Source of the DNA: Voacanga thouarsii
Lineage: Eukaryota > Streptophyta > Magnoliopsida > Gentianales > Apocynaceae
DNA length: 64,000 nt
Direction: 5' to 3'
Assembly (NCBI GenBank): GCA_026120185.1
Contig: JANUWF010002425.1
Location: 310,001 to 374,000, forward strand
The notes under the pieces: generated by a model
Databases searched by the model: none
The model's input: the letters and a program-made list of their open reading frames with translations, nothing else
What the model was told of the DNA's origin: nothing
Position numbers and translations under genes: made by a program
Shown: positions 15,060 to 63,725 of the stretch, piece by piece
Layout: the number at the start of each line of letters is the position of its first letter
Numbering within the stretch: position 1 is the stretch's first letter

Positions 15060-16500
15060 CTAGCACGCACGTCTTGAGGAACTAGCAATGGAAAGAGGAA
15101 ACAAAAGAATGGTTCAGGAGGGTGTTAGTGACAGTGACAGGGACAGGATAGTCATGTAAGCTCAGGGCTAGACTAGTCGGGGTAGTTCGAGGTACGAGTT
15201 CCTCCCCCATGATTCCAGCACCGTGCAAGGTTTCCTATGTACCGCATATGGAGGTCAGTGTGCCTCCATCTCCACCGTTTGTACCGCCGCCAATTACTTT
15301 ATGGCCACCCCTAATTTCTATGCCAACGGAGGTGCCCACTTTTGTCCCATCAGCTATGCTAGGAATTAGCACACTGTTGGACATACCTACAACTTTGGCT
15401 ATAGTGGCTTAAGCAATGCAGAGCCAGTAGCTACTACAATAAGAATAGATGAGAGTTTAACAGGAGCAATTTAGACTTCAGAAAGAACAACAGCAGCTCC
15501 AGCGGGATCGGGAGCGCAGGCATCAGAGGAGTGATTCATGAGCAAGATCATTATACGAACGCATAAAGAAAATAGGGTTCCCAACATTCAATGGTGTATG
15601 TAGGCCAGATAGAATGGAAGAGTGGATTGAGGAACTGGAACATCATTTTGAGACCATGGAAGTCCCAGAGGAGGTCAAGCTGAAGGTGGCTGTTCCGTTT
15701 CTGGTGGGGAAGCACTGAGATGGTGGAAAAGTATGAAGTCTATTTATCATCAAGGGGAAGAGCCATTCACTTGGCAGAAGTTCATAGAGATCTTTCTGGA
15801 ATAGTACTTCCCAGACACCTTTAAGATAGAGAAAAAGAACTAATTCTTCGAATTGGTGCAGACCGAGCAAATGAGTGTGACGGACTATGCACTCCAGTTT
15901 AATGCTTTGAGGAAATATGCTCTAGCTATCATGCGAGACCCTATCTCAAGGATGAACAAGTTTGTTCGAGAACTGCAGGCAAGAATTAGAGGAAGACTAT
16001 CAGCAATCAGGTCTAGCAGCTATAAGGAGGCTTATCATAGGAGTTTGGATATAGAGGCAGAATTCAAATGGATGGACTCCGAGAGGGACAAGAAGAGATC
16101 AAGATCACAATTTGAGCAGGGGCAGGGCACCTAGTCAGTAGTAAGTCAGAAATAGGGTCCCAGACCAGTGTACAGCTTTGGTTAGAGTGTCGAGTTAAGG
16201 TTGCTTGGATTCCACTTGGGATAGGGACTTAAGGCATCACCCCCAGGTCTTATGGATGCTAAAAGGAGGGCAATGGCGAGTGTTCCGAGGCTAGTTGTTT
16301 CAGGGCCCCATACTGATGGTTCTGCAAAATCTTTAGCATCCAACGCAAACCCAATTTAGAAGGATTGCAACACATGTGGTAGGAAGCATCCAGGAGAGTG
16401 TAGATGCACTATTGAAAATTGCTTTAAGTACGGGAAGCAAGGTCACAAGATTGGTCAGTGTCCAGAGTTAGCTCAAGGACCAAGGTAAGCAGCGGTTAGT
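15060..16500 (+). pseudogene. gypsy gag, degenerate
   Basis: Gag/capsid region of the Tekay-like element. Readable pieces include GFPTFNGVCRPDRMEEWIEE near 15570-15630, a 93-codon stretch 15853-16134 (MSVTDYALQFNALRKYA and DPISRMNKFVREL), and a zinc-knuckle region at 16366-16470 (CNTCGRKHPGEC, then CFKYGKQGHKIGQC). In the second knuckle the second cysteine is tyrosine. Several stops and frame changes separate the pieces. Confidence 0.7.
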
Positions 16501-16547
16501 TCAGGCCAGCCAAGACTAGGGGACAGCAGCAGAGGTCCAATGCGCGA

Positions 16548-16952
16548 ATGTTCACCCTCACTTGTGAGGAGGCAGATGCATCAGATGATGTGGTGATAGA
16601 TACCATTCTGATTAACTCAGTACCTACTGTGGTATTGCTTGACTGTGGTGTATCTTATTCATTCATATACCGTAGATTTGTTAAGACCCACAAGGCAACC
16701 CCTACCTACTTAGCTAATCCCTATAGGGTGTTTATTCCCAATGGTAAGGTGCTAGTCTCTAACCTGGTTCATAAGAGGTGTCGGGTGAGTATTGGTGAGG
16801 AGAAGCTAGAGGCTAATCCAATGCAAATTAACATGGTGGATTTTGATGTCATCTTTAGTATGGATTGGTTAGCTAAGAATCATACTTTGGTAGATTGTCG
16901 GGAAAAGATGGTGCAATTTGCTATTTCAGGTAGAATAACTTTTCATTTTTAG
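16548..16952 (+). pseudogene. gypsy aspartic protease region
   Basis: An open stretch of 134 codons of the polyprotein protease. The active-site region reads LLDCGVSYSFI where functional copies have D(S/T)GA(S/T)HSF, so the catalytic motif is altered (D-C-G-V). The downstream DFDVIFSMDWLAKNH corresponds to the family's 'DxILGMDWL', with G to S. Confidence 0.75.
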
Positions 16953-25202: not shown

Positions 25203-26358
25203 TGATATAGTGATATTGCATTGAATATTTTGGGAGACTTTTGGATAGATCATGTTATAATTTAATGCAATATGAGGTTTATTTGGACAGGTTACTCTCT
25301 TTTGTGGTTATTTAATTTTTCTAGAGACTTGAACAAAAAAACACATAAGTTGCGGGGTTGAAGAATCAATTTTTTGAAAGCTCTCATGAGGATAGTTAAA
25401 TCCGGTGCCGGATTGAACTCTCCAACAGGCTCCAGTGAAGATAAAAGCCGAAAAGAGCGAATTTTGGAGGAGGAGGCCATTAGAGACGAATTTTGTTCAA
25501 TTTCTTTTAATATTAGTTTTAGATATTATCTTCCTAGGGTTTTTTTTGTTGTAATTTTGAGAGGGTTTTCCATTGTTAGACACATATTAGAGGCTACTTG
25601 TGGACAAACTTGGAGATTGTATTAGTATACTGTGATGTTTTCTCATACATTCTCTTTTAATTTGTTCTTGAATTTCTCTTCAATTATGCATTAATTTCTT
25701 ATTCTAAGGTCATGATGTAGCTAGTATTGATTATTATATTATCTTGTGATTCTGTTATTTGAAGGGTGTTACTAAGTCTTTGCCTAATTATTATACTGAA
25801 AGCAATTGAATGCCTGATCACTATTCAAATTGATTTATCATTAACTAGGAAAATTCGAATGATGACTTAGTTAATTAGAACAGGTAATTAGACTAAAAAT
25901 TACATGTGAAATAGAAATATATTTGCATGGTTTGTGTGATCATTATAATGCCATGTTCTTGAATGCGTTCCTGTGAATTGAATTCAACATAGAAATACAG
26001 TTGGGTTATTTGGAGGAATAGAATTAATATACTTTGAAAAATGATATTGGTTAATTCTGACATTGATTAACTGATAAGGTACACTTGAGAATAATGGGTC
26101 ACGTTGGTAATATAAGAATTGATCTAGTGAAATCATGTGCCTTAGATCATCTCCTTACAATCTTTATCCGGGAAGAAGTGCTAATTTAGTTATTTCAATT
26201 TAATTCTCAAAACCATAATCATTGGAATCTTTATTTTCTTTTAATTCAAGTTAGAATTAATTTCATTGGAAGGAGTTCTAATTTCTAATCTCTGTGGGAC
26301 GACCTTGTTACTATAAACGAGATCTAATACACTTACTAGTGCTCCGAATTGGTTATCA
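25203..26358 (+). repeat. Athila-like 3' LTR
   Basis: 1156 bp, TGATATAGTGATATTGC to GAATTGGTTATCA. TG and CA ends intact. Contains TCCGGTGCCGGATTG at 25401-25415. Confidence 0.85.
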
Positions 26359-26363
26359 CTCTC

Positions 26364-26787
26364 CTACCAAAGGTGTGATGCGGTTTGGCAAAAGTGGGAA
26401 ATTAAGTCCGCGATACATGGGACCATATGAGATACTTGAGAGGGTTGGTGAATTGTCCTACCAGTTAGCGTTGCCACCGGTATTGTCGAGGATTCATAAC
26501 GTATTCCATGTATCACAATTGAGGAAGTATGTGTTAGATCCGAGTCACGTGTTAGAGATATCACCTTTGCAGGTGCGGGAAGATTTGACTTTTGATGAGG
26601 TGCCAGTTAGGATTGTGGATAGGAAGTTGCAGGTTCTAAGGCGAAGAACCATTCCGTGTGTTCCAATCACTCAGAATATGAAGCAGTTTGGGAATTAGAA
26701 GAGGAGGCACGTTAGAAGTATCCATATCTGTTCAATGACTTAGGTACATAAGTTTCGAGGACAAAACTTTTCGTAAGGGGGTTGGAA
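26364..26787 (+). pseudogene. gypsy integrase C-terminus and chromodomain-like tail, PPT
   Basis: This continues the integrase interrupted at 19599: SPTKGVMRFGKSGKLSPRYM, then IHNVFHVSQLRKYV and PVRIVDRKLQVLRRRTIPCV. A shift of frame near 26660 leads into a chromodomain-like end (YEAVWELEEEAR then KYPYLF), typical of plant chromoviruses, which use it to choose heterochromatic targets. AAGGGGGTTGGAA at 26775-26787 directly before the 3' LTR is the polypurine tract. Confidence 0.75.
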
Positions 26788-39672: not shown

Positions 39673-39832
39673 AGGGTCTCCTTTTGAGTTCTTTGTAAAT
39701 CAATCTTTGCTTCTGCTGATGCAAAAGCTCACAAATCAGCTTGTTCTTCCTAGCCATCTCTAGTTCATCACCAAAGATTGGCCATCCTAGCCCTTTTTAT
39801 CCTAGATATGTTTTGTTCATTTCTGTGGAAAT

Positions 39833-42800
39833 ATGTTCTCTAAGATGGAGACAGGGCAAGATCTCTTGATTCATCTTGTAGATCTAGCTTCTGCTACGGC
39901 ACATCTCTCCAATATGGAAGGAGATATGACTTTCATGATCTCTGATCTTCAAAGAGCTATCAGCCCTGTTGCTTCGGAGGTCATACAGTTGAATCTGGCT
40001 GTCCGGAAAGTATATCCAGAACTCTTGCAAGCTTCAAAGCTGCCGGGTTCAGACACTTCCATGGCTGTTGATGATTTGGTCATCAGCTCAAGAGAATTAC
40101 TGCAGTTGAGATCATATTCAAACAGCATATGTAGTATTGTTCGGCATGACTGGACTCGGAAAGTTAACCCACCTCAAGTAAGTGAATGAGAATCTTTCAA
40201 TATTCTACTATCTAGATTAGTAATTTTTTAAAAAAAATTAACTTCTATTTTGATCCGAGCAATATATGGAACATTGAGACATGAAATGACTTACATATGC
40301 TAATAATGGAAGTAGTGTTATAAAATTAGGGTAGTGTTAGAATAAAATCTACACACTATACATTAAGAAAATTCTAACTATTCTTTGCACAAGAATTTCT
40401 CTTTAAACTTCTCTCTTTCTTTCTCTCACAATTCTTTCTTTAATCTTTCTTTCACTAATCTTTCTTTCACAAAATAATGGTGTATTACAAGCTTAGAGAA
40501 TAGCTCTATTTATAGAGCTCTAATTAGTGGAATACATCATGGCATACATCATCTTCCACTACTCTCAATTAGTGATGTCTCCACTAAATGGTGGACATCC
40601 ATAAAAATCTTCTCTAATTATTCACATAAATCCATAATTAGTGGAACCTCCACTAATTAATGGAGATTCCAATAATTCATAACACTCTCCCTTGGATGTC
40701 CATCCATTACATAAAGAATATGCCTCGTTAAAACCTTACTAGATAAAAACCCAGTGGGAAAAAAAATCTAGTGAAGGAAAAAGAGTACACTATTCTATAT
40801 GTCTGTTTATTACTCCCCCTGATGAGATGATTCCTTTAAATCTTTAAACCGACGCATACCGATTTTATATCTCAACTTCTCAAATGTTGCAATCGGTAAA
40901 GTCTTCGTGAAAATATTTGCGAGGTTATCACATGATCGAATTTGTAGCACATCAATTTCACCTTTCTTCTGGAGTTCATGAGTAAAGAAGAATTTTGGTG
41001 AAATATATTTTGTCTGATCTCCTTTAATATATCCTCCTCGTAATTGAGTTATGCAAGCTGCATTGTCTTCATAAAGAGGAGTTGGAATACCTGTGATTGA
41101 TGATAATCCACAACTTTCTCGGATATAATGAATCATGGATCTTAGCCATACACATTCTCGACTTGCTTCATGAATGGCTATAATTTCAGCATGATTTGAA
41201 GAAGTAGCTGCTATAGATTGTTTCGTAGAACACCATGATATAGCAGTATTTCCACATGTAAATAGATAGCCCGTTTGAGAACGTGCTTTATGTGGATCAG
41301 ATAAATAACCAGTATCTGCATAACCTATCAATGTTGGATTGGTTTTATTTGAATAAAATAATCCGAGATCAATTGTACCTTGGAGATATCGAAGGACTTG
41401 TTTAATTCCATTCCAATGTCGTCGTGTTGGTGAAGAACTAAATCTTGCTAATAAATTGACAGTAAAAGTAATATCAGGTCTTGTATTATTAGCAAGATAC
41501 ATCAATGCACCAATTGCACTAAGATATGGTACTTCAGGACCAAGGAGTTCTTCATCATTTTCTTGAGGTCGGAAAGGATCTTTATCCACATTTAATAATC
41601 GGACGATCATTGGAATACTCAATGGATGTGCTTTGTCCGTGTAAAATATTTTTAGCGCTTTTGCTGTATATGTTGATTGATGAATAAATGTTCCACTCTC
41701 CAAATGTTCAATTTGTAAACCAAGGCAAAATTTGGTTTTACAAAAATTCTTGATTTCGAATTCTCTTTTTAAATAATCAATTGTTTCTTGGAGCTCTTCA
41801 AGAGTTCCAATAAGATTAATATCATCAACATATATAGCTAATATCACAAATTTAGAACCAAATTTCTTAATAAAAACACATGGACATACCTGGTCATTTT
41901 TAAATCCCGCTTTCAATAAATATTCACTAAGACGTGTGAATCACATGCGCCCAGATTGCTTCAGGCCATATAATGATTTCTGCAACTTGATGGAGTAATT
42001 TTCACGAGGATAATGTTTATATGCTTCAGGCATATGAAATCCTTCGGGGATTTTCATGTAAACATCATTTTCTAAATTTTTATACAAGTAAGCAGTGACA
42101 ACATCTAATAGACGCATATCTATCTTTTCATGTACTACCAAACTGATAAGATATTGGAGTGTAATAGCATCAACAACAGGAGAATAAGTTTCATCATAAT
42201 CAATACCTGGTTTTTGTGAAAAACTTTGGACTACTAATCGCGCTTTATATCGAATGATTTCACTCTTTTCATTGCGCTTTCGCACAAATATTCATTTGTA
42301 GCCAACAGGTTTTACACCTTCTGGTGTTCGGACTGCAGGTCCGAAGACTTCACGTTGTGTCAGTGCATTTAACTCCGATTGAATCGCATCTTTCCATTGT
42401 AGCCAATCTTTTTTATGCCGACATTCATCAACTGATATTGGTTCAGGATCATCACTATCATATATAACATCAAGAGATATTATATGCAAACATATGATCA
42501 ATAATTGTTTCTATCCGATTCCAACTTTTATCGGAAGTGGTATAATGGATAGAAATTTCAGTGTTACTTTCATTTATGTCTGGTTCTTTGCCATAAGTTT
42601 TCTCTTGGTCTTTATCATTCTTTGCTTTAATATGATCATCTGGACCATTAATCCTCTCTTTTTTCGAAGATTTTTATCTTTAGAACCAAGAGGTCGGTCA
42701 TGCTTCTGGCATGCTTTTGGCTCAGCAGCTATATGTAAAATTTTTTGTTCTGTTGGAACTTCAATTAGAATAGGAGCATTTATAGTTGGCATATGCGATT

Positions 42801-43154
42801 TTGTTACTCTTCTAGAGTCAACAAAAGCGTCTGGCATTTGATTTGCAATGCTTTACAAATAAATTATCTTTTGAACTTCAAGTTCACACGCGCTTGTATG
42901 CGGATCAAGATAATTTAATGATGTTGTCCAATCACGATCTTTCTTGTACTGTTTCTATTCTCCCCCTAATTTAGGGAATAATGATTTCACAAGAGAATAA
43001 GAAAAGAAATATAAGAAAATGATGACAAGCAGGAAATGCCAAGAAAAATATCTCCTTTTTTTTTTCACTCTTTCCGGTACCGACTTTTCCTCTTCATCTC
43101 TTGTCTTTTCTTCTCCTCCGACTTTCTACCTACCATCTACCTCTTCTTCTTCCT

Positions 43155-43193
<39 letters not shown>

Positions 43194-45989
43194 ATCGATA
43201 TATATCTCAGTTATCAGTCATTAGTAAACATCAAAAACAAAAATCACAAAGCAGATATGGAGACTCGTAATTCATTTGAGACATGGTCAAATTTTGACTC
43301 GGTTTCTGCAGCAGATGTTGATGTATTTTCCTTTCCAAACCAACCGCTTCTGCCTAATTCGAACGCATAAGAGTTTGATATGTTTTCCTTTCCAAATCAA
43401 CCGCTTCCTCCTAATTTCAGGTGAGATACCTTTGAGGGCTTCCATTTGTTTTTAGTATGCTTGATAATGAAATTAAACTCTCTTTTGGTTTGTTTTTTAT
43501 GTAAATCAGTGGAAGTTTTGAACATACTGCTTTGGACCAAGTTGATCTGCCCTTACAAGAGACTGCTTTTGATACTGTTCCTCTTGATGCTATTCATTTG
43601 AATGAGGATATGCTTGTGCATGATCATTTCTACTCTCTAATGGATTTTGAACAAAGCCAGAATATGTTTCCAGGTTATTATACATTTAAACATGGATTTT
43701 GAATGGTATTACCTTTACTGATATTATTTTCTTTTTCTAGGAGAAATAATGAGTGGTCTTGGCAACGAAGTCGGAGTAAGTACTCATGAAATGCATAATA
43801 TCGAAGTTCAAGATATTATTGCAGACAAAATTCCTGGGGAGAAGAAGATGATTAAGAGGCAGAGAGAGAAGACGGGCAATAACTCCCAAACACTATCAAG
43901 AGAAACAATTTCGCAGTACTTTTACCTACCAATCAAGAGCGCAGCCAAAGAATTGAATATTGGCATAACCCGTCTCAAGAAAAGATGTAGGAAGTTAGGA
44001 ATTCGTCGATGGCCTCACAGGAAATTGGTGAGCTTGGAGACCATAATCAAGAATGTTCAGGTTCTCTCTCATACATACTTATAATTTGCAAGTATGAAAC
44101 TATGAAAGATTTATAAGTAAATAACCGATGATATCACTTCGATTTACAGGAGATGCAAAATAAAGAAGAAGGAGGACATATGGCTGAGAAGAAGTTGAAA
44201 GAAGCCATTTCGATACTGGAATGTGAAAAACAATTGGTGGAAGAAAGTCCTAATACGCAATTAGAGAACCAAACACAGAAATTGAGACAAGCATGCTTCA
44301 AGGCCAAATATAATAAGAAATTTAATTATAATAAACTTAAGGAGATCATAAATCCCAAGACTCAATTCGCAGTAATTTTACGGCTAATTCTGCTGCTAGT
44401 CTCGATGCTGATTCAAAGGGGAAAGAAAAGGAAGAGGATGTCGAAAAAGATGAGTGAAGTCCATAATTACTAATTGTTTGTCTTCCTCTAATGTAAATAT
44501 TGAAAAAGAACAATTACAAACCTTCATCTTACATTTGTTAGCTCAATTACAAAAGAGCAACTATAAGCATGTATCCTCAAGTTCATATGAACACTAGTGA
44601 TATGAATAAAAGATGTGATGCTTATTATTAATAGAAATATATTTTTCCCTTATTATCTTTTCTGTTACACTTCAGGTGGCTAGTATTTCTCTATGATAAG
44701 GGAAATATCGAGTGTGTCCATGACCATAACCACGGCCACTGCCACAACTACGACTATAACGATGGCTTCTGTTGGAGCCAACAGCATTCACTTCTGAGAC
44801 TGTTGTTGAGCCAATTTATCTGGCTTCATGATTTCTCAATAATAACTCATGTTAAAGCTGTCAATTTTGGATACCCTTTTTCTCGATATTGTTACTGTAG
44901 GACATGAAAAGTGAAGAATGTCTTCTCTAATATAACTTCATCAGTAACTTTTTCTCCGTAAAATTTTTAACTAAGATGTAGTTTTATATATCACGGAGTT
45001 CACGGTTTTACAATCTTGCAACTTCAGGTGCAACCATTTATACCGTGCAGTGGGTAGTACGACCATCTTTAGGTGGTCAAATCTTTCTTTTTATCCACAT
45101 GACATATGGATCTCCTTTTTTTTTTAGCATTTAGATGCATTTCTGTATGACATATAATTTTTTTTTCCAGAAATATCAAGGGCTACAAATTCGAATTTAG
45201 CGAGATCAATAAATGCGTACCTGTCTTCTGGCTTTAATAACGGCAGAGATTCGTGTTGATAACGTGTTATAAAATTAGGGTAGTGTTAGAATAAAATCTA
45301 CACACTACACACTAAGAAAATTCTAACTATTCTTTGCACAAGAATTTCTCTTCAAACTTCTCTCTTTCTTTCTCTCACAATTCTTTCTCTTCAAACTTCT
45401 CTCTTTCTTTCTCTCACAATTCTTTCTCTAATCTTTCTTTCACTAATTTTTCTTTCACAAAATAATGGTGTATTACAAGCTTAGAGAATAGCTCTATTTA
45501 TAGAGCTCTAATTAGTGGAATACATCATGGCATACATCATCTTCCACTAATCTCAATTAGTGGTGTCTCCACTAAATGGTGGACATCCATAAAAATTTTC
45601 TCTAATTATTCACATAAATCTATAATTAGTAGAGCCTCTATTAATTAATGGAGATTCCAATAATTCATAACAAGTAGATTTTTCTTTACAGTATTTTATA
45701 TATCAAATCTCACCATTTGAAGCCATATTTTCTTTATTTTGCAGCATTGTTGTGAGATAAAGAAATTTTTAGTTAGGAATTGCTACAGATGTGGAAAAAT
45801 GAAGGATTCATATAAAAATTATATTAAAATATAATTATGGATTACTGAAGGATTTACGTGGGGATAAAATGAGACTATCAATTACTAGAAGCCTAATAAC
45901 TGTTATTTTGAATCCAACAACAGGATCAAAGCATGTCAGACGATGATCAAGATGGGGCTAAAACATGTGGTATTTATGATATGTTTTAG
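39833..45989 (+). CDS. small two-exon plant gene, function unknown (intron hosts a retrotransposon)
   Basis: Exon 1, 39833-40177, encodes 115 residues and ends CAA|GTAAGT, a strong donor, in phase 0. The next in-phase acceptor with a sensible reading is AACAACAG at 45923; exon 2, 45924-45989, adds 21 acidic residues (DQSMSDDDQDGAKTC then YDMF) and a stop, for 136 in total. METGQ at 39845 is an alternative start. The protein is mostly helical in appearance (HLVDLASATAHL, ISDLQRAISPVASEVIQL, DDLVISSRELLQL), with no signal peptide or membrane segment, and I do not recognise the family. The intron is 5746 bp, of which 5362 bp is the copia element plus one target copy; without it the intron would be 384 bp. 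The exon 2 assignment is inferred from phase and splice consensus alone. Confidence 0.5.
40316..40684 (-). repeat. copia 3' LTR
   Basis: 369 bp, TG...CA, preceded outside by AGTAG. On the minus strand it is preceded by the polypurine tract CCAAGGGAGAG (40685-40695). Confidence 0.9.
40810..42990 (-). pseudogene. copia reverse transcriptase and RNase H, with nonsense codons
   Basis: Read on the minus strand from about 42990: a linker after integrase (LFPKLGGE, then DWTTSLNYLDPHTS and ANQMPDAFVDSR), RT start near 42480 (KDWLQWKDAIQSELNAL), RT core (RYKARLVVQSFSQKPGIDY), the catalytic YVDD near 41835, and RNase H (GYADTGYLSDPHKARSQTGY near 41310; LYEDNAACI near 41060) to the stop at 40810. The largest piece is 368 codons open (41916-40810). 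Two tryptophan codons are TGA (41941-41943 in 'GRMW' and 42292-42294 in 'GYKW'). The order RT-RNase H after integrase is the copia order. The polymerase is no longer made as one chain. Confidence 0.85.
43000..43256 (+). promoter_or_regulatory. short upstream region of the RKD gene
   Basis: Only about 250 bp separate the last recognisable copia sequence from the first RKD ATG. It contains CT-rich sequence (43070-43155) and an (AT)n run at 43160-43188 and would have to hold the promoter if the gene is expressed from its own signals. No clear TATA box can be separated from the AT repeat. Confidence 0.35.
43257..43379 (+). pseudogene. upstream RKD reading frame ending at TAA
   Basis: METRNSFETWSNFD to a stop at 43368 is in frame with the main RKD frame and is RKD-like in tone. 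The segment FSFPNQPLLPN (about 43327-43359) is repeated as FSFPNQPLPPN just after the stop (43383-43415), so an internal ~54 bp tandem duplication is present. It could act as an upstream ORF of 37 codons. Confidence 0.5.
43380..44473 (+). CDS. RKD-type RWP-RK transcription factor inside a copia element
   Basis: Four exons, 43380-43420, 43510-43673, 43741-44060 and 44150-44473, with GT-AG introns of 89, 67 and 89 bp, give an uninterrupted 282-residue frame. The RWP-RK domain spans residues ~120-173, with the signature RWPHRK at 158-163 and the preceding YLPIKSAAKELNIGITRLKK helix. A basic stretch (KKMIKRQREK) precedes it and a charged, probably coiled-coil tail follows (EKKLKEAISILECEKQLVEE). 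RKD proteins (about 250-310 residues) are nuclear regulators of egg-cell identity and early embryo patterning. A longer start at 43257 (METRNSFETW) is in frame but meets TAA at 43368-43370; the ATG at 43380 bypasses it. So the gene is either functional with a shorter N-terminus or newly nonsense-mutated. It runs antisense to the surrounding retrotransposon and in the same direction as the gene hosting that element. Confidence 0.8.
44605..44610 (+). terminator. poly(A) signal AATAAA of the RKD gene
   Basis: AATAAA 132 bp after the RKD stop codon, within an AT-rich 3' end that finishes before copia gag sequence resumes at about 44650-44690. Confidence 0.5.
44690..45240 (-). pseudogene. copia gag, decayed
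   Basis: Read on the minus strand from about 45210: LAKFEFVALDISGK, then after breaks ARYKWLHLKLQD-like and VILEKTFFTFHV, then a C-terminal SEVNAVGSNRSHRYSR followed by a Gly/Arg/His-rich end (GSGRGYGHGH). This is the usual order in plant copia gag. It stops where the CCHC knuckle should follow, at the junction with the RKD cassette. Stops and deletions make it non-functional. Confidence 0.65.
45265..45672 (-). repeat. copia 5' LTR
   Basis: 408 bp, TGTTATAAAATT to AATTCATAACA, followed by AGTAG. Carries an extra tandem copy of a 39 bp CT-rich unit (around 45350-45425) absent from the 3' LTR. Confidence 0.9.
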
Positions 45990-52909: not shown

Positions 52910-54604
52910 AGGTGAAACCAATAGAATAAGCCACTGGACGGATGTAATGAAGTTCATTGGGTTTAAAGACACTGTGGTCCAAAAGGAGTTCTGGTATTTC
53001 TGTCACCTGAAATTAATTAAATAAAAGCTAAAGCACTTTCTTTTAAGAATTCATTTGGTTCAATCTTTCTTTCGCTACACTATTTGGAATAATTATGTCA
53101 TATTGAGAAGTTTTGTTCAGTTGCATTGATAGAATGACAACTCCTTTGTGGCTTTGGGGAATGAATCAGAAAAGGTTGAGGCCCAATCAGTCTTTGAAAG
53201 GTGTGTCTAACCCTAAGCCGCTACCCTATGAGGTAGAGAACCCTCACCTCAGACATGGCGGCAAAAAGGTATAGAAGACACAAGACCTGAGGAGAGCTAG
53301 AATTAGGTAAGGCACCTAACCCAAAGAGATAGACTGAAGAATGGTCCCACCCACCCTCGTGTCAGATGCCATACCAACGACATCTACCCTCGTAGCACTT
53401 CTATGTATTCCCTAACCTGTTATCACTCTTAATTTCTGTGTTATGAATTCTCAAGTCTTCTTATTTTGTTTTATTGCAATTATGATAGTTTGGAAACTTA
53501 AAACGAGAATCAGAAAATAGAGGGATTATGCTTTTATGCTCTTGATTTTCATAACAACAAATATTGAATCGACCAAGTCAAGCATTTTTCAAGACAGCTG
53601 GTGCTTGTCTTTGTCTTCTAAATTGCAAGTGAAGTAAAATTAAATTAGTGAATTACATACTTCCATAGTTCAGCTATAATCTCATTTGTCCTCATCTCCC
53701 CAACTATACACACTTAAAAAAGATCAATGCAGAGAGTAATTTAATGGATGCCGAGTCTAGAACGCAATAAAATTTGGGTGGATTACAATGAACGACACTC
53801 TACAAACTAAAGTTTTTTACCGGAATTTTTCTGAAAAATCCAAGACAATAAGCGGGTAAAAAAAAAATGTATAAACAAATTCAAATCGAGAGCAAAAATT
53901 TCAGCAAAATTCGCATACTCGGGAAAAGGTTAACCCATCTTATGCAAAAAGGAAAGTTCAGAAAGTACAAACCTTTTTGCTCTCTTGGGATCAAGCAAAG
54001 CAAGCTCTTGAAGTTTATCTGCTCCCATAGCCTTCTTCGTGGGGTCCACCATCATAGCCTCAAACGAACTCACCACGGCAGAAGTCGACCCGTCCATCGA
54101 ACTACTATGCCTATGACGGCCGACCACCCCAGCCGCAGAAAGTGCGGTACCACCAGCGCCATCCGCCGACGAGGAGGAAGAAGCACCAAAATTCAGACCC
54201 TCAAAGAAGTCAGCGTCAACAGACAAGCTCCTAAAATGGACTTTTCCCTCGGGCCTAATGGGCTGCGCCTGGACCTGTGCAGACGAGTTGCTACTCTTGG
54301 CGGCTGTGGAAGGCTGAAGCTGCTGCACGGCGTTCGGATTCTGGTTAGAATCCGACGAAAGAGAAGGAGCTGGAGGGAGGTCAAAAACGACATCGTCCAA
54401 AAGGATATCATCATCGAAGTCAGGGAAGCGGAAGAAAGTTTCCGACTGGGCCCGACGGTGGTGGGCCCCTCGGTTAGGAGTATCTGGCATCTGGTCAAGG
54501 TCAAAGTCTGCTCTTACTCCTCCTCCTCCTCCTCCACCTCCACCACCACTACCACTCATCAAGTGTTGGGCAGCTATAGGCTTTCCAGTGAAGTTAGGGT
54601 CCAT
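49111..54604 (-). CDS. group I bZIP transcription factor (VIP1/PosF21 type)
   Basis: Four exons on the minus strand, 54604-53973, 52752-52620, 49856-49772 and 49373-49111, with GT-AG introns of 1220, 2763 and 398 bp, give 370 residues. The basic region is [12 protein letters not shown] (residues 215-226): the N-x7-R of most bZIPs is N-x7-K here (Asn215, Lys223), the mark of plant group I. The zipper has Leu at 233, 240, 247, 254, 261 and 268. Before it, LLDPKRAKR is strictly family-like. Three serine sites in the family's 14-3-3 / kinase context are present: [10 protein letters not shown] (Ser near 54), [11 protein letters not shown] (near 130) and RHSSSMDGS (near 168). A Gly10 run lies near residues 20-29 and a Gln9 run in the C-terminus. 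Group I bZIPs are nuclear DNA-binding dimers, kept in the cytosol by 14-3-3 proteins until dephosphorylated (for example under osmotic or touch stress). Start: MDPNFTG; a GTG-CTG precedes it and is not a start. The gene looks intact. Confidence 0.92.
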
Positions 54605-62939: not shown

Positions 62940-63725
62940 ATGGTTGGAGGTTCTTTTAGTCCATTGGCTATTATTCTCCGAGAGAATAAGCTAACAGGAC
63001 CAAAATATGTAGACTGAAAAAGGAACCTGTACATAATACTCACAACCGAGGAATATAAGTATGTCCTGTACGAAACCTGCCCTATAATCGGGGAGGGTTC
63101 CACTGTCGAGGAGCGGGAAGCTGAGAAGGTATGGAAGAAAGCCGACGAGATGGCTCGTTATTACATATTGGCCTCCATGTCTAATGTGCTCCAATCCAAA
63201 CATGAGCACATGACCACTGCGTACGACATAACCCAATCATTAGCCACGATATTCGCGGATAAGAGTCGGCCCGCAAGGCAGGAGGCTCTTCGAACCATCA
63301 TAAACACTAAGATGGCTGAGGGAGTATCAGTTAGAGAATATATGCTCAAAATGATTGCTGCTTTCGAGGAGGCAAAAATCTTAGGGACTGTCATTGACCC
63401 CAAGAGTCAAGTGGACATGGTTCTCGAATCTCTACCGGGTTCCTTCACTCAGTTCAAATTGAACTATAACATGAACAAGTTGAACATGGGTTTGACTGAG
63501 TTGATAAAGGAGCTCCAAATAGCGGAGAAGGTCATGAAGCCACAGTCAAAGGTAATGATTGCTAAGGCTTCATCTTCTAGAACTGGGCTTAAGCCCAGAA
63601 AGTACAAGAAGAAGAAGGGGAACACAGCGGGCCAGCCCAAGACCCAGCTCAAAGACAAACCCAAGGGCAAGTGCTTCAAGTGTGGACTGAAGGGACACTG
63701 GAAAAAGGAGTGTCCGGATCTTTAA
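62940..63725 (+). pseudogene. copia gag with nonsense codons
   Basis: The frame begins at ATG 62940 (MVGGSFSPLAIILRENKLTG) and has TGA at 63015-63017, where related gags have tryptophan (NYxxWKRNL), then runs open to TAA at 63723. Capsid segments seen: YETCPIIGEG, SVREYMLKMIAAFEEAKILG, and a Lys-rich stretch before the CCHC knuckle CFKCGLKGHWKKEC (63673-63714). Gag coats element RNA; the knuckle binds it. Apart from the early TGA the chain is well preserved (from residue 27 on), so it is a fairly young insertion. Confidence 0.85.

What the first reader, a model, noticed from the sequence alone, without database searches (positions are those of the whole stretch)
40316..45672. A copia retrotransposon carries an RKD (RWP-RK) gene between its LTRs
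Seen: paired LTRs with TG/CA ends, a perfect AGTAG duplication, primer site and PPT, decayed gag on one side and RT-RNase H on the other, and in the place of protease/integrase a multi-exon gene with an intact RWP-RK domain. Known: RKD genes control egg-cell and embryo identity, and RWP-RK loci are linked to nucellar embryony in some fruit trees; LTR elements with transduced host genes are known but rare, mainly in grasses. Inferred: the element captured the gene (or the gene filled a gap in the element) and may have spread it. A mobile embryo-identity regulator would be new to me.
Basis: partly seen in the sequence, partly recalled or inferred. Interest (0 to 1): 0.92.

Follow-up and report, generated by a model that had tools for sequence, protein, structure and literature searches.

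The report
Jumping element carrying an RKD gene
In a plant genome, probably of the coffee family, a retrotransposon carries a predicted complete gene of the RKD type (a family known from other plants to control egg-cell identity), and this unit, introns included, stands at 40 or more places in the genome; whether any copy is active is untested.

Summary
Window 40316-45672 is a copia-type LTR element (TGTTAT...ATAACA ends, AGTAG duplication) with a predicted four-exon RKD gene, antisense to the element, where the 3' part of gag, protease and integrase would stand. It is not a one-off. The 40 places scored in the host genome (window plus 39) are the same element with both copia-RKD junctions; 24 of 40 have perfect 5-bp target duplications, 22 different ones. 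RKD introns are present in 40 of 40. An uninterrupted 365-aa RKD with all splice sites remains in 13 of 40; the window copy is broken. In all, 187 places carry the gene or its RWP-RK exon, a lower bound; first looks gave about 3,500 candidates. LTR divergence (median 0.020) points to a recent burst. RKD variants look neutral and nonsense alleles are shared by 4 and 5 copies, so RKD is most likely a passenger moved in trans; the antisense position would explain intron survival. No single-copy donor was identified. An older RKD family (L048 plus 39 places, 82-90%, homologous introns) and 60 listed intronless RKD matches show wider RKD dispersal in this genome. Expression and host effect are untested.

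The parts
40311..40315 (.). left copy of target site duplication AGTAG
   Evidence: sequence
40316..40684 (-). 3' LTR of the element (element runs on the minus strand)
40685..40697 (-). purine tract beside the 3' LTR (polypurine tract by position)
   Evidence: sequence
40810..41940 (-). RT 3' part and RNase H side of pol, open over 376 codons
   Evidence: PF07727, E=2.2e-13; RNase H by position, no Pfam hit
41941..42291 (-). RT 5' part, cut from the rest by one in-frame stop in this copy
   Evidence: PF07727, E=7.3e-26
42574..42990 (-). decayed copia sequence upstream of RT (integrase-RT linker by recall); the copia-RKD junction lies near 42990
   Evidence: sequence; match across the junction in 40 of 40 copies
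42991..43256 (+). RKD 5' region with an AT microsatellite; possible promoter (predicted only)
   Evidence: sequence; in 40 of 40 copies a match covers at least about the first 95 of 231 bases from 43030
43257..43420 (+). RKD exon 1 (predicted); premature stop in this copy
43510..43673 (+). RKD exon 2 (predicted)
43741..44060 (+). RKD exon 3 (predicted) with the RWP-RK domain, about 43893-44036
44150..44597 (+). RKD exon 4 (predicted) to the stop used by the intact copies; two one-base gaps in this copy
44605..44610 (+). AATAAA, possible poly(A) signal of RKD
   Evidence: sequence
44672..44815 (-). gag remnant (Arg/Gly-rich stretch, named by recall)
   Evidence: no Pfam match
45124..45264 (-). 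5' end of the gag remnant and leader (named by recall)
   Evidence: no Pfam match
45265..45672 (-). 5' LTR of the element
45673..45677 (.). right copy of target site duplication AGTAG
   Evidence: sequence

Best explanation
This is a copia-type LTR retrotransposon, apparently non-autonomous, that holds a predicted complete, intron-containing RKD gene on its opposite strand and stands at 40 or more places in its host genome, most likely copied there by enzymes from other copia elements with RKD as a passenger. Shown: the same unit of about 5.1-5.4 kb, with both copia-RKD junctions, at many sites with different target duplications; RKD introns present in all 40 copies; an uninterrupted 365-aa frame in 13 of 40. 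Inferred: because the gene lies antisense in the genomic RNA, its splice signals would not be read when the element is transcribed, so introns survive reverse transcription and each insertion delivers a gene with its own 5' and 3' regions. Inferred: capture replaced the 3' part of gag, protease and integrase, by template switching or by insertion plus deletion, so gag and integrase must come in trans. Inferred from variant counts: selection did not keep the protein during the recent burst.
For:: window plus 39 places (the scoring limit) match 42900-44700 over at least 1799 of 1801 bases, the 39 at 95-97%; matches span both junctions in 40 of 40; 24 of 40 perfect 5-bp duplications, 22 different; each of three introns keeps GT-AG in 37 of 40; 13 of 40 full 365-aa frames. 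RT Pfam match in the window, longest RT-side frame 658 aa (L044); no gag-side frame over 101 aa (72 without L019, whose end was miscalled); 150 of 150 scored RWP-RK hits pass the cut-off, of 3618 first-look candidates; union is 187 places on 104 contigs. LTR K2P median 0.020 (0.0055-0.039), 33 pairs; private N:S:stop 159:69:17 against 172:58:14.5 expected; shared 89:37:7; two nonsense alleles shared by 4 and by 5 copies. N:S in the RT half is also near the neutral expectation and does not fall with frequency.
Against: No transcripts were examined, so own-promoter expression is a guess. No autonomous partner was searched for or found. In the RT half nonsense alleles are rare in the highest frequency class (1 of 88 variants shared by 6-20 copies, about 5.5 expected), which hints at some selection on RT. 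In the 52 RWP-RK codons dN/dS against L048 is 0.22-0.40 in 12 of 13 intact copies and 0.51 in one, so constraint may have acted on that path, part of it perhaps inside the mobile lineage; but dN there (0.09-0.12) is close to the simple intron distance (12% differences), so this sign is weak. The 40 copies are the best matches to the window copy, so the share of intact frames is not that of the whole family.
Confidence: 0.85

Rival explanations
1. RKD is an accessory gene of the element: its protein would act in egg cells or early embryos and help the family transpose in the germ line, so it was kept by selection among elements.
For: Open 365-aa frame in 13 of 40 copies; RWP-RK dN/dS against L048 of 0.22-0.40 in 12 of 13; RKD genes act in the egg apparatus of other plants (PMC7140868, passages).
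Against: Private and shared variants have nearly the same N:S (159:69 and 89:37), and two nonsense alleles are shared by 4 and 5 inserted copies, so the full frame seems not needed in cis for recent transposition. A benefit in trans is not excluded.
Confidence: 0.1
2. The RKD gene was already mobile in another vehicle, and the copia element picked up one of those dispersed copies, by nested insertion or recombination, before its own burst. (Compatible with the best explanation; differs in origin.)
For: An older intron-containing RKD family (L048 plus 39 scored places at 82-90%); a joined probe found none of the window's copia pieces beside these 40. 60 listed matches are intronless RKD copies.
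Confidence: 0.4
3. Segmental duplication, assembly artefact or chance pairing of two solo LTRs around a resident RKD gene.
For: None found beyond one tandem array (L018).
Against: Same unit at 40 places, 24 with perfect duplications of 22 kinds, and both junctions in 40 of 40.
Confidence: 0.01

Closest known systems
Bs1 of maize (LTR element with pieces of three host genes)
   Same: LTR retrotransposon with host gene sequence inside
   Different: Bs1 segments had no full-length ORFs (PMC13317346, passages); here a predicted complete multi-exon gene with introns, antisense, in 40 or more copies
Rider/SUN of tomato
   Same: LTR retrotransposon moving a host gene
   Different: Called the only experimentally characterised transduced segment in plants (PMC13317346, passages); here a family of copies shares fixed junctions, and function is untested
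LTR-captured genes of sorghum and rice
   Same: Host sequences captured in LTR elements; 1343 in sorghum, up to 72.4% expressed (PMC13317346, passages)
   Different: The source paper's text had no match for intron, antisense or transcription factor and I saw one passage of it (PMC3726574); orientation and copy number were not compared
Antisense additional ORFs (Grande gene23, RIRE2, Retand ORF4, PvRetro13)
   Same: Antisense gene carried by most copies of an LTR family, in Grande with its own promoter
   Different: Those lie between pol and the 3' LTR and have no clear similarity to other known proteins (PMC7264820, parts 1-2 of 3 read); here the ORF is a recognisable host RKD in the place of protease/integrase
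RKD genes of eudicots (RWP-RK, no PB1)
   Same: RWP-RK domain; best hit Cornus RKD1-like, 42% over 90% of the query
   Different: Multicopy and inside an LTR element; protein branch twice that of L048 (0.44 against 0.22)

Membership tests
LTR retrotransposon | paired LTRs with TG/CA ends and target site duplication | tested here: met
LTR retrotransposon | primer binding site next to the 5' LTR | tested here: inconclusive
   sequence read; no TGG start at the border; tRNA complementarity not computed
LTR retrotransposon | same unit at many sites with different duplications | tested here: met
   24 of 40 perfect, 22 different
Ty1/copia | copia-type reverse transcriptase | tested here: met
   PF07727
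Ty1/copia | integrase upstream of RT | tested here: not met
   no integrase seen among the frames listed and scanned; RKD stands in its place. Called copia-type on its RT alone, as a deleted derivative
RKD (RWP-RK without PB1) | RWP-RK domain over the Pfam cut-off | tested here: met
RKD (RWP-RK without PB1) | no PB1 or other domain (unlike NLP) | tested here: met
   RWP-RK only in the 365 aa of L022
RKD (RWP-RK without PB1) | expression in egg cell or embryo | not testable with these tools
   no transcript data
transduced host gene | a donor gene in the host without LTR flanks | tested here: inconclusive
   the relative read is multicopy; no single-copy donor identified

The most novel reading that the evidence does not exclude
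A mobile egg-cell and embryo regulator: a retrotransposon family seeds hundreds to thousands of intron-bearing, promoter-bearing RKD genes over a genome; some are expressed in the egg or embryo, where they alter reproductive identity and open the germ line to further transposition.
Probability: 0.1. Interest if true: 0.95.

Novelty: new variant of a known kind. Interest (0 to 1): 0.82.

Why it matters
A review of extra ORFs in plant LTR elements describes transduced genes as present in one or a few copies and usually in sense, and antisense ORFs as without a known host source (PMC7264820, parts 1-2 of 3). Here a predicted complete host transcription-factor gene is a fixed antisense part of an amplified family: a direct example of how an antisense ORF can arise and how introns can pass through retrotransposition. 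Because RKD factors can specify egg-cell fate in other plants, it makes a testable case of a developmental regulator turned into a repeat, and it warns that RWP-RK gene counts in such genomes may be repeat counts.

Tried and rejected
Solo-LTR coincidence, misassembly and segmental duplication: rejected. Selection on RKD during the burst: not seen. The RT half was meant as a comparison; its N:S shows no selection either, though stops are rare at high frequency, so it does not prove the power of the method. L048 as single-copy donor: rejected, since it is multicopy. Same copia flanks around L048-type RKDs: none of 40, with the caveat on reach. A second RKD in the window: none at E 1. P0105 (Tanacetum, a gag-like start fused to RKD) was looked at as a possible parallel case and left: a fused gene model is as likely. 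Exact copy number by pattern: not completed. Autonomous partner: not searched, because only the 40 closest places are scored per DNA search and no more genome letters could be read.

Full report
What is there. Window 40316-45672 is an LTR element on the minus strand. Its LTRs are 369 and 408 bases (0.967 identical where aligned), its ends TGTTAT/ATAACA, and AGTAG stands on both sides. In element order it reads: 5' LTR, two short gag-like remnants, an RKD gene on the opposite strand, a copia-type RT and RNase H half, a purine tract, 3' LTR. RT is PF07727. The gag remnants match no Pfam model and are named from recall; RNase H is named by position. No integrase or protease was seen. The RKD gene has four predicted exons with GT-AG introns; exon 3 holds an intact RWP-RK domain (E=4.6e-23). 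In the window copy exon 1 has a premature stop and exon 4 two one-base gaps against the other 39 copies.

It is a family. A search of the window's own genome (1.35 Gb, 1848 contigs) with 42900-44700 scored 40 places: the window and 39 others, which cover at least 1799 of 1801 bases at 95-97%. 3525 candidates came up in the first look, so 40 is the scoring limit. I fetched the 39 with flanks; all align along the element, one (L039) without its left LTR in the stretch fetched and one (L015) cut by a contig end. Matches span both copia-RKD junctions in 40 of 40. Perfect 5-bp duplications flank 24 of 40, with 22 different sequences. The other 16 include L039 and L015, copies with inserted or missing LTR parts, and several whose ends my script called wrongly, so 24 is a floor. 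One copy (L018) is part of a tandem array. A search for the RWP-RK family scored 150 places, all above the cut-off, of 3618 candidates. Only 3 of these 150 are among the first 40, so the union is 187 places on 104 contigs. These 150 may include ordinary RWP-RK genes and other RKD families; the commonest open frame around the hit, 120 codons, is that of the window's element (78 of 150). The true number is probably far higher, perhaps thousands, but no exact count was obtained.

State of the gene. All three introns are present in 40 of 40 copies, and each keeps GT-AG in 37 of 40. Thirteen of 40 copies have an ATG, all splice sites and one uninterrupted 365-aa frame. These 40 are the best matches to the window, so the fraction is not that of the whole family. 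The protein has the RWP-RK domain and no other Pfam domain. The best hit in 5.8 billion proteins is Cornus RKD1-like, 42% over 90% of the query; of the 120 hits listed (293 found) none covering 70% or more exceeds 46%.

Age. K2P distance between the LTRs of a copy has median 0.020 (0.0055-0.039) in 33 of 40 copies; 7 were left out for incomplete or odd LTRs. With a rate of 1.3e-8 per site and year, recalled and not taken from a call, the median is near 0.8 million years.

Selection. Among 40 copies, substitutions seen in one copy only fall in the RKD coding sequence as 159 nonsynonymous, 69 synonymous and 17 nonsense; a neutral model with the observed mutation spectrum expects 172, 58 and 14.5. 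Substitutions shared by two or more copies are 89, 37 and 7, nearly the same ratio. Two nonsense alleles that are not C-to-T changes are shared by 4 and by 5 copies, so lineages without the full protein have transposed, unless the same change arose several times. In the RT half (39 of 40 copies) the private counts are 327, 104 and 33 against 342, 93 and 29 expected; N:S does not fall at higher frequency (93:40, 104:34, 66:21), but stops do in the top class (1 of 88, about 5.5 expected), a hint of some selection on RT. The logic follows PMC9073684 (abstract seen). On the whole the family behaves as a passenger moved in trans; this is an inference.

Origin. With Coffea RKD as query, 124 of 6498 candidates were scored. 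The listing, which stops short of the 202 matches, shows 60 matches that run across the exon 3/exon 4 border with no room for an intron, 5 of them without a stop: processed RKD copies. It also shows intron-containing pairs. I read one of these, L048 (C591:1751150-1752040). It has an open frame over exons 2-4 and introns 2 and 3 homologous to those of the element (88% over aligned bases; intron 3 is 147 against 89 bases). It is nearer to ordinary RKDs (59-61% to Nyssa, Coffea, Actinidia, Vitis). A tree joins it with four element copies at 98/90 support; the element branch is 0.44 and the L048 branch 0.22 (the bootstrap had not settled). So the captured gene kept genomic introns and belongs to an RKD lineage of this plant. 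But L048 is itself multicopy: 39 other scored places at 82-90%, of 2250 candidates. A joined probe found no window-type linker, gag or LTR beside any of these 40, with the caveat that the reach of the scored stretch is not stated. Thus RKD was dispersed in more than one way here, and the donor remains unknown. dN/dS between L048 and the 13 intact copies is 0.45-0.70 overall; in the 52 RWP-RK codons it is 0.22-0.40 in 12 and 0.51 in one. Against the introns (12% differences) rather than synonymous sites, dN of the whole stretch (0.15-0.21) shows no constraint and dN of the domain (0.09-0.12) hardly any, so evidence of past selection is weak, and it may date from the time as a host gene.

Mechanism. 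Shown: structure, spread, intron retention. Inferred: the antisense position hides the splice sites from the element's transcript, the simplest way for introns to pass through an RNA step; gag and integrase come in trans; RKD may be transcribed from its own upstream region, of which at least about the first 95 of 231 bases match in 40 of 40 copies.

Host. A VIP1-like gene in the window is nearest, among named hits, to Oldenlandia, Cinchona and Coffea (60-63%; other named hits listed 54% or lower; unnamed hits up to 79%), and the RKD trees also put the element with Gentianales. The plant is probably a Rubiaceae.

Literature. Seven searches (listings with abstract starts) showed no title or abstract start on an RKD or RWP-RK gene inside an LTR element. 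Most subscription journals and all bioRxiv preprints are outside the library, and most listed papers were not opened. PMC7264820 (parts 1 and 2 of 3 read) states that transduced genes occur in one or a few copies and usually in sense, and that most antisense ORFs are of unknown origin. PMC13317346 (passages) lists Bs1, a TRIM and Rider, says that transduced segments can be full-length genes, and cites 1343 captured sequences in sorghum, many expressed; capture as such is well known. PMC3726574 (one passage) and PMC5664825 (passages) gave nothing parallel. RKD function is from PMC7140868 (passages).

Verdict. Novel as a variant of gene capture; function in the plant is open.

Noticed in passing
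G000, 60 places listed (such as C817:3446982-3447506, C1837:965706-966206): Intronless RKD copies spanning the exon 3/4 border, 55 with stops, 5 without: processed retrocopies of RKD in unusual number.
   Followed up: partly
L048 and 39 further places: Older multicopy RKD family with introns, 82-90% identical, without detected window-type copia flanks; its vehicle is unknown.
   Followed up: partly
G000:C486:1180762-1182463: Two RKD-like genes head to head, their exon 3 matches 67 bases apart, no stops in the listed matches of either.
   Followed up: no
L018: Tandem array: the gag side of another copy abuts the left LTR of this one.
   Followed up: partly
window 16500-16949, 26282-26695: Retroviral-type protease (PF08284) and Tf2-1-type integrase end (PF24626), probably remains of a gypsy element.
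   Followed up: no
window 63018-63722: Copia-type gag with zinc knuckle (PF14223, PF00098), open over 235 codons, in another element.
   Followed up: no
window 53933-54604: Exon of a VIP1-like bZIP gene by its homologues, nearest to Rubiaceae among named hits.
   Followed up: yes
window 39806-40186: Open frame of 127 codons whose stop ends 126 bases before the element, no Pfam match; the element may lie in or beside a host gene.
   Followed up: no
P0105 (Tanacetum coccineum): Predicted protein annotated as CCHC zinc finger whose C-terminal part is an RKD after a gag-like start; a fused model or a parallel case.
   Followed up: partly
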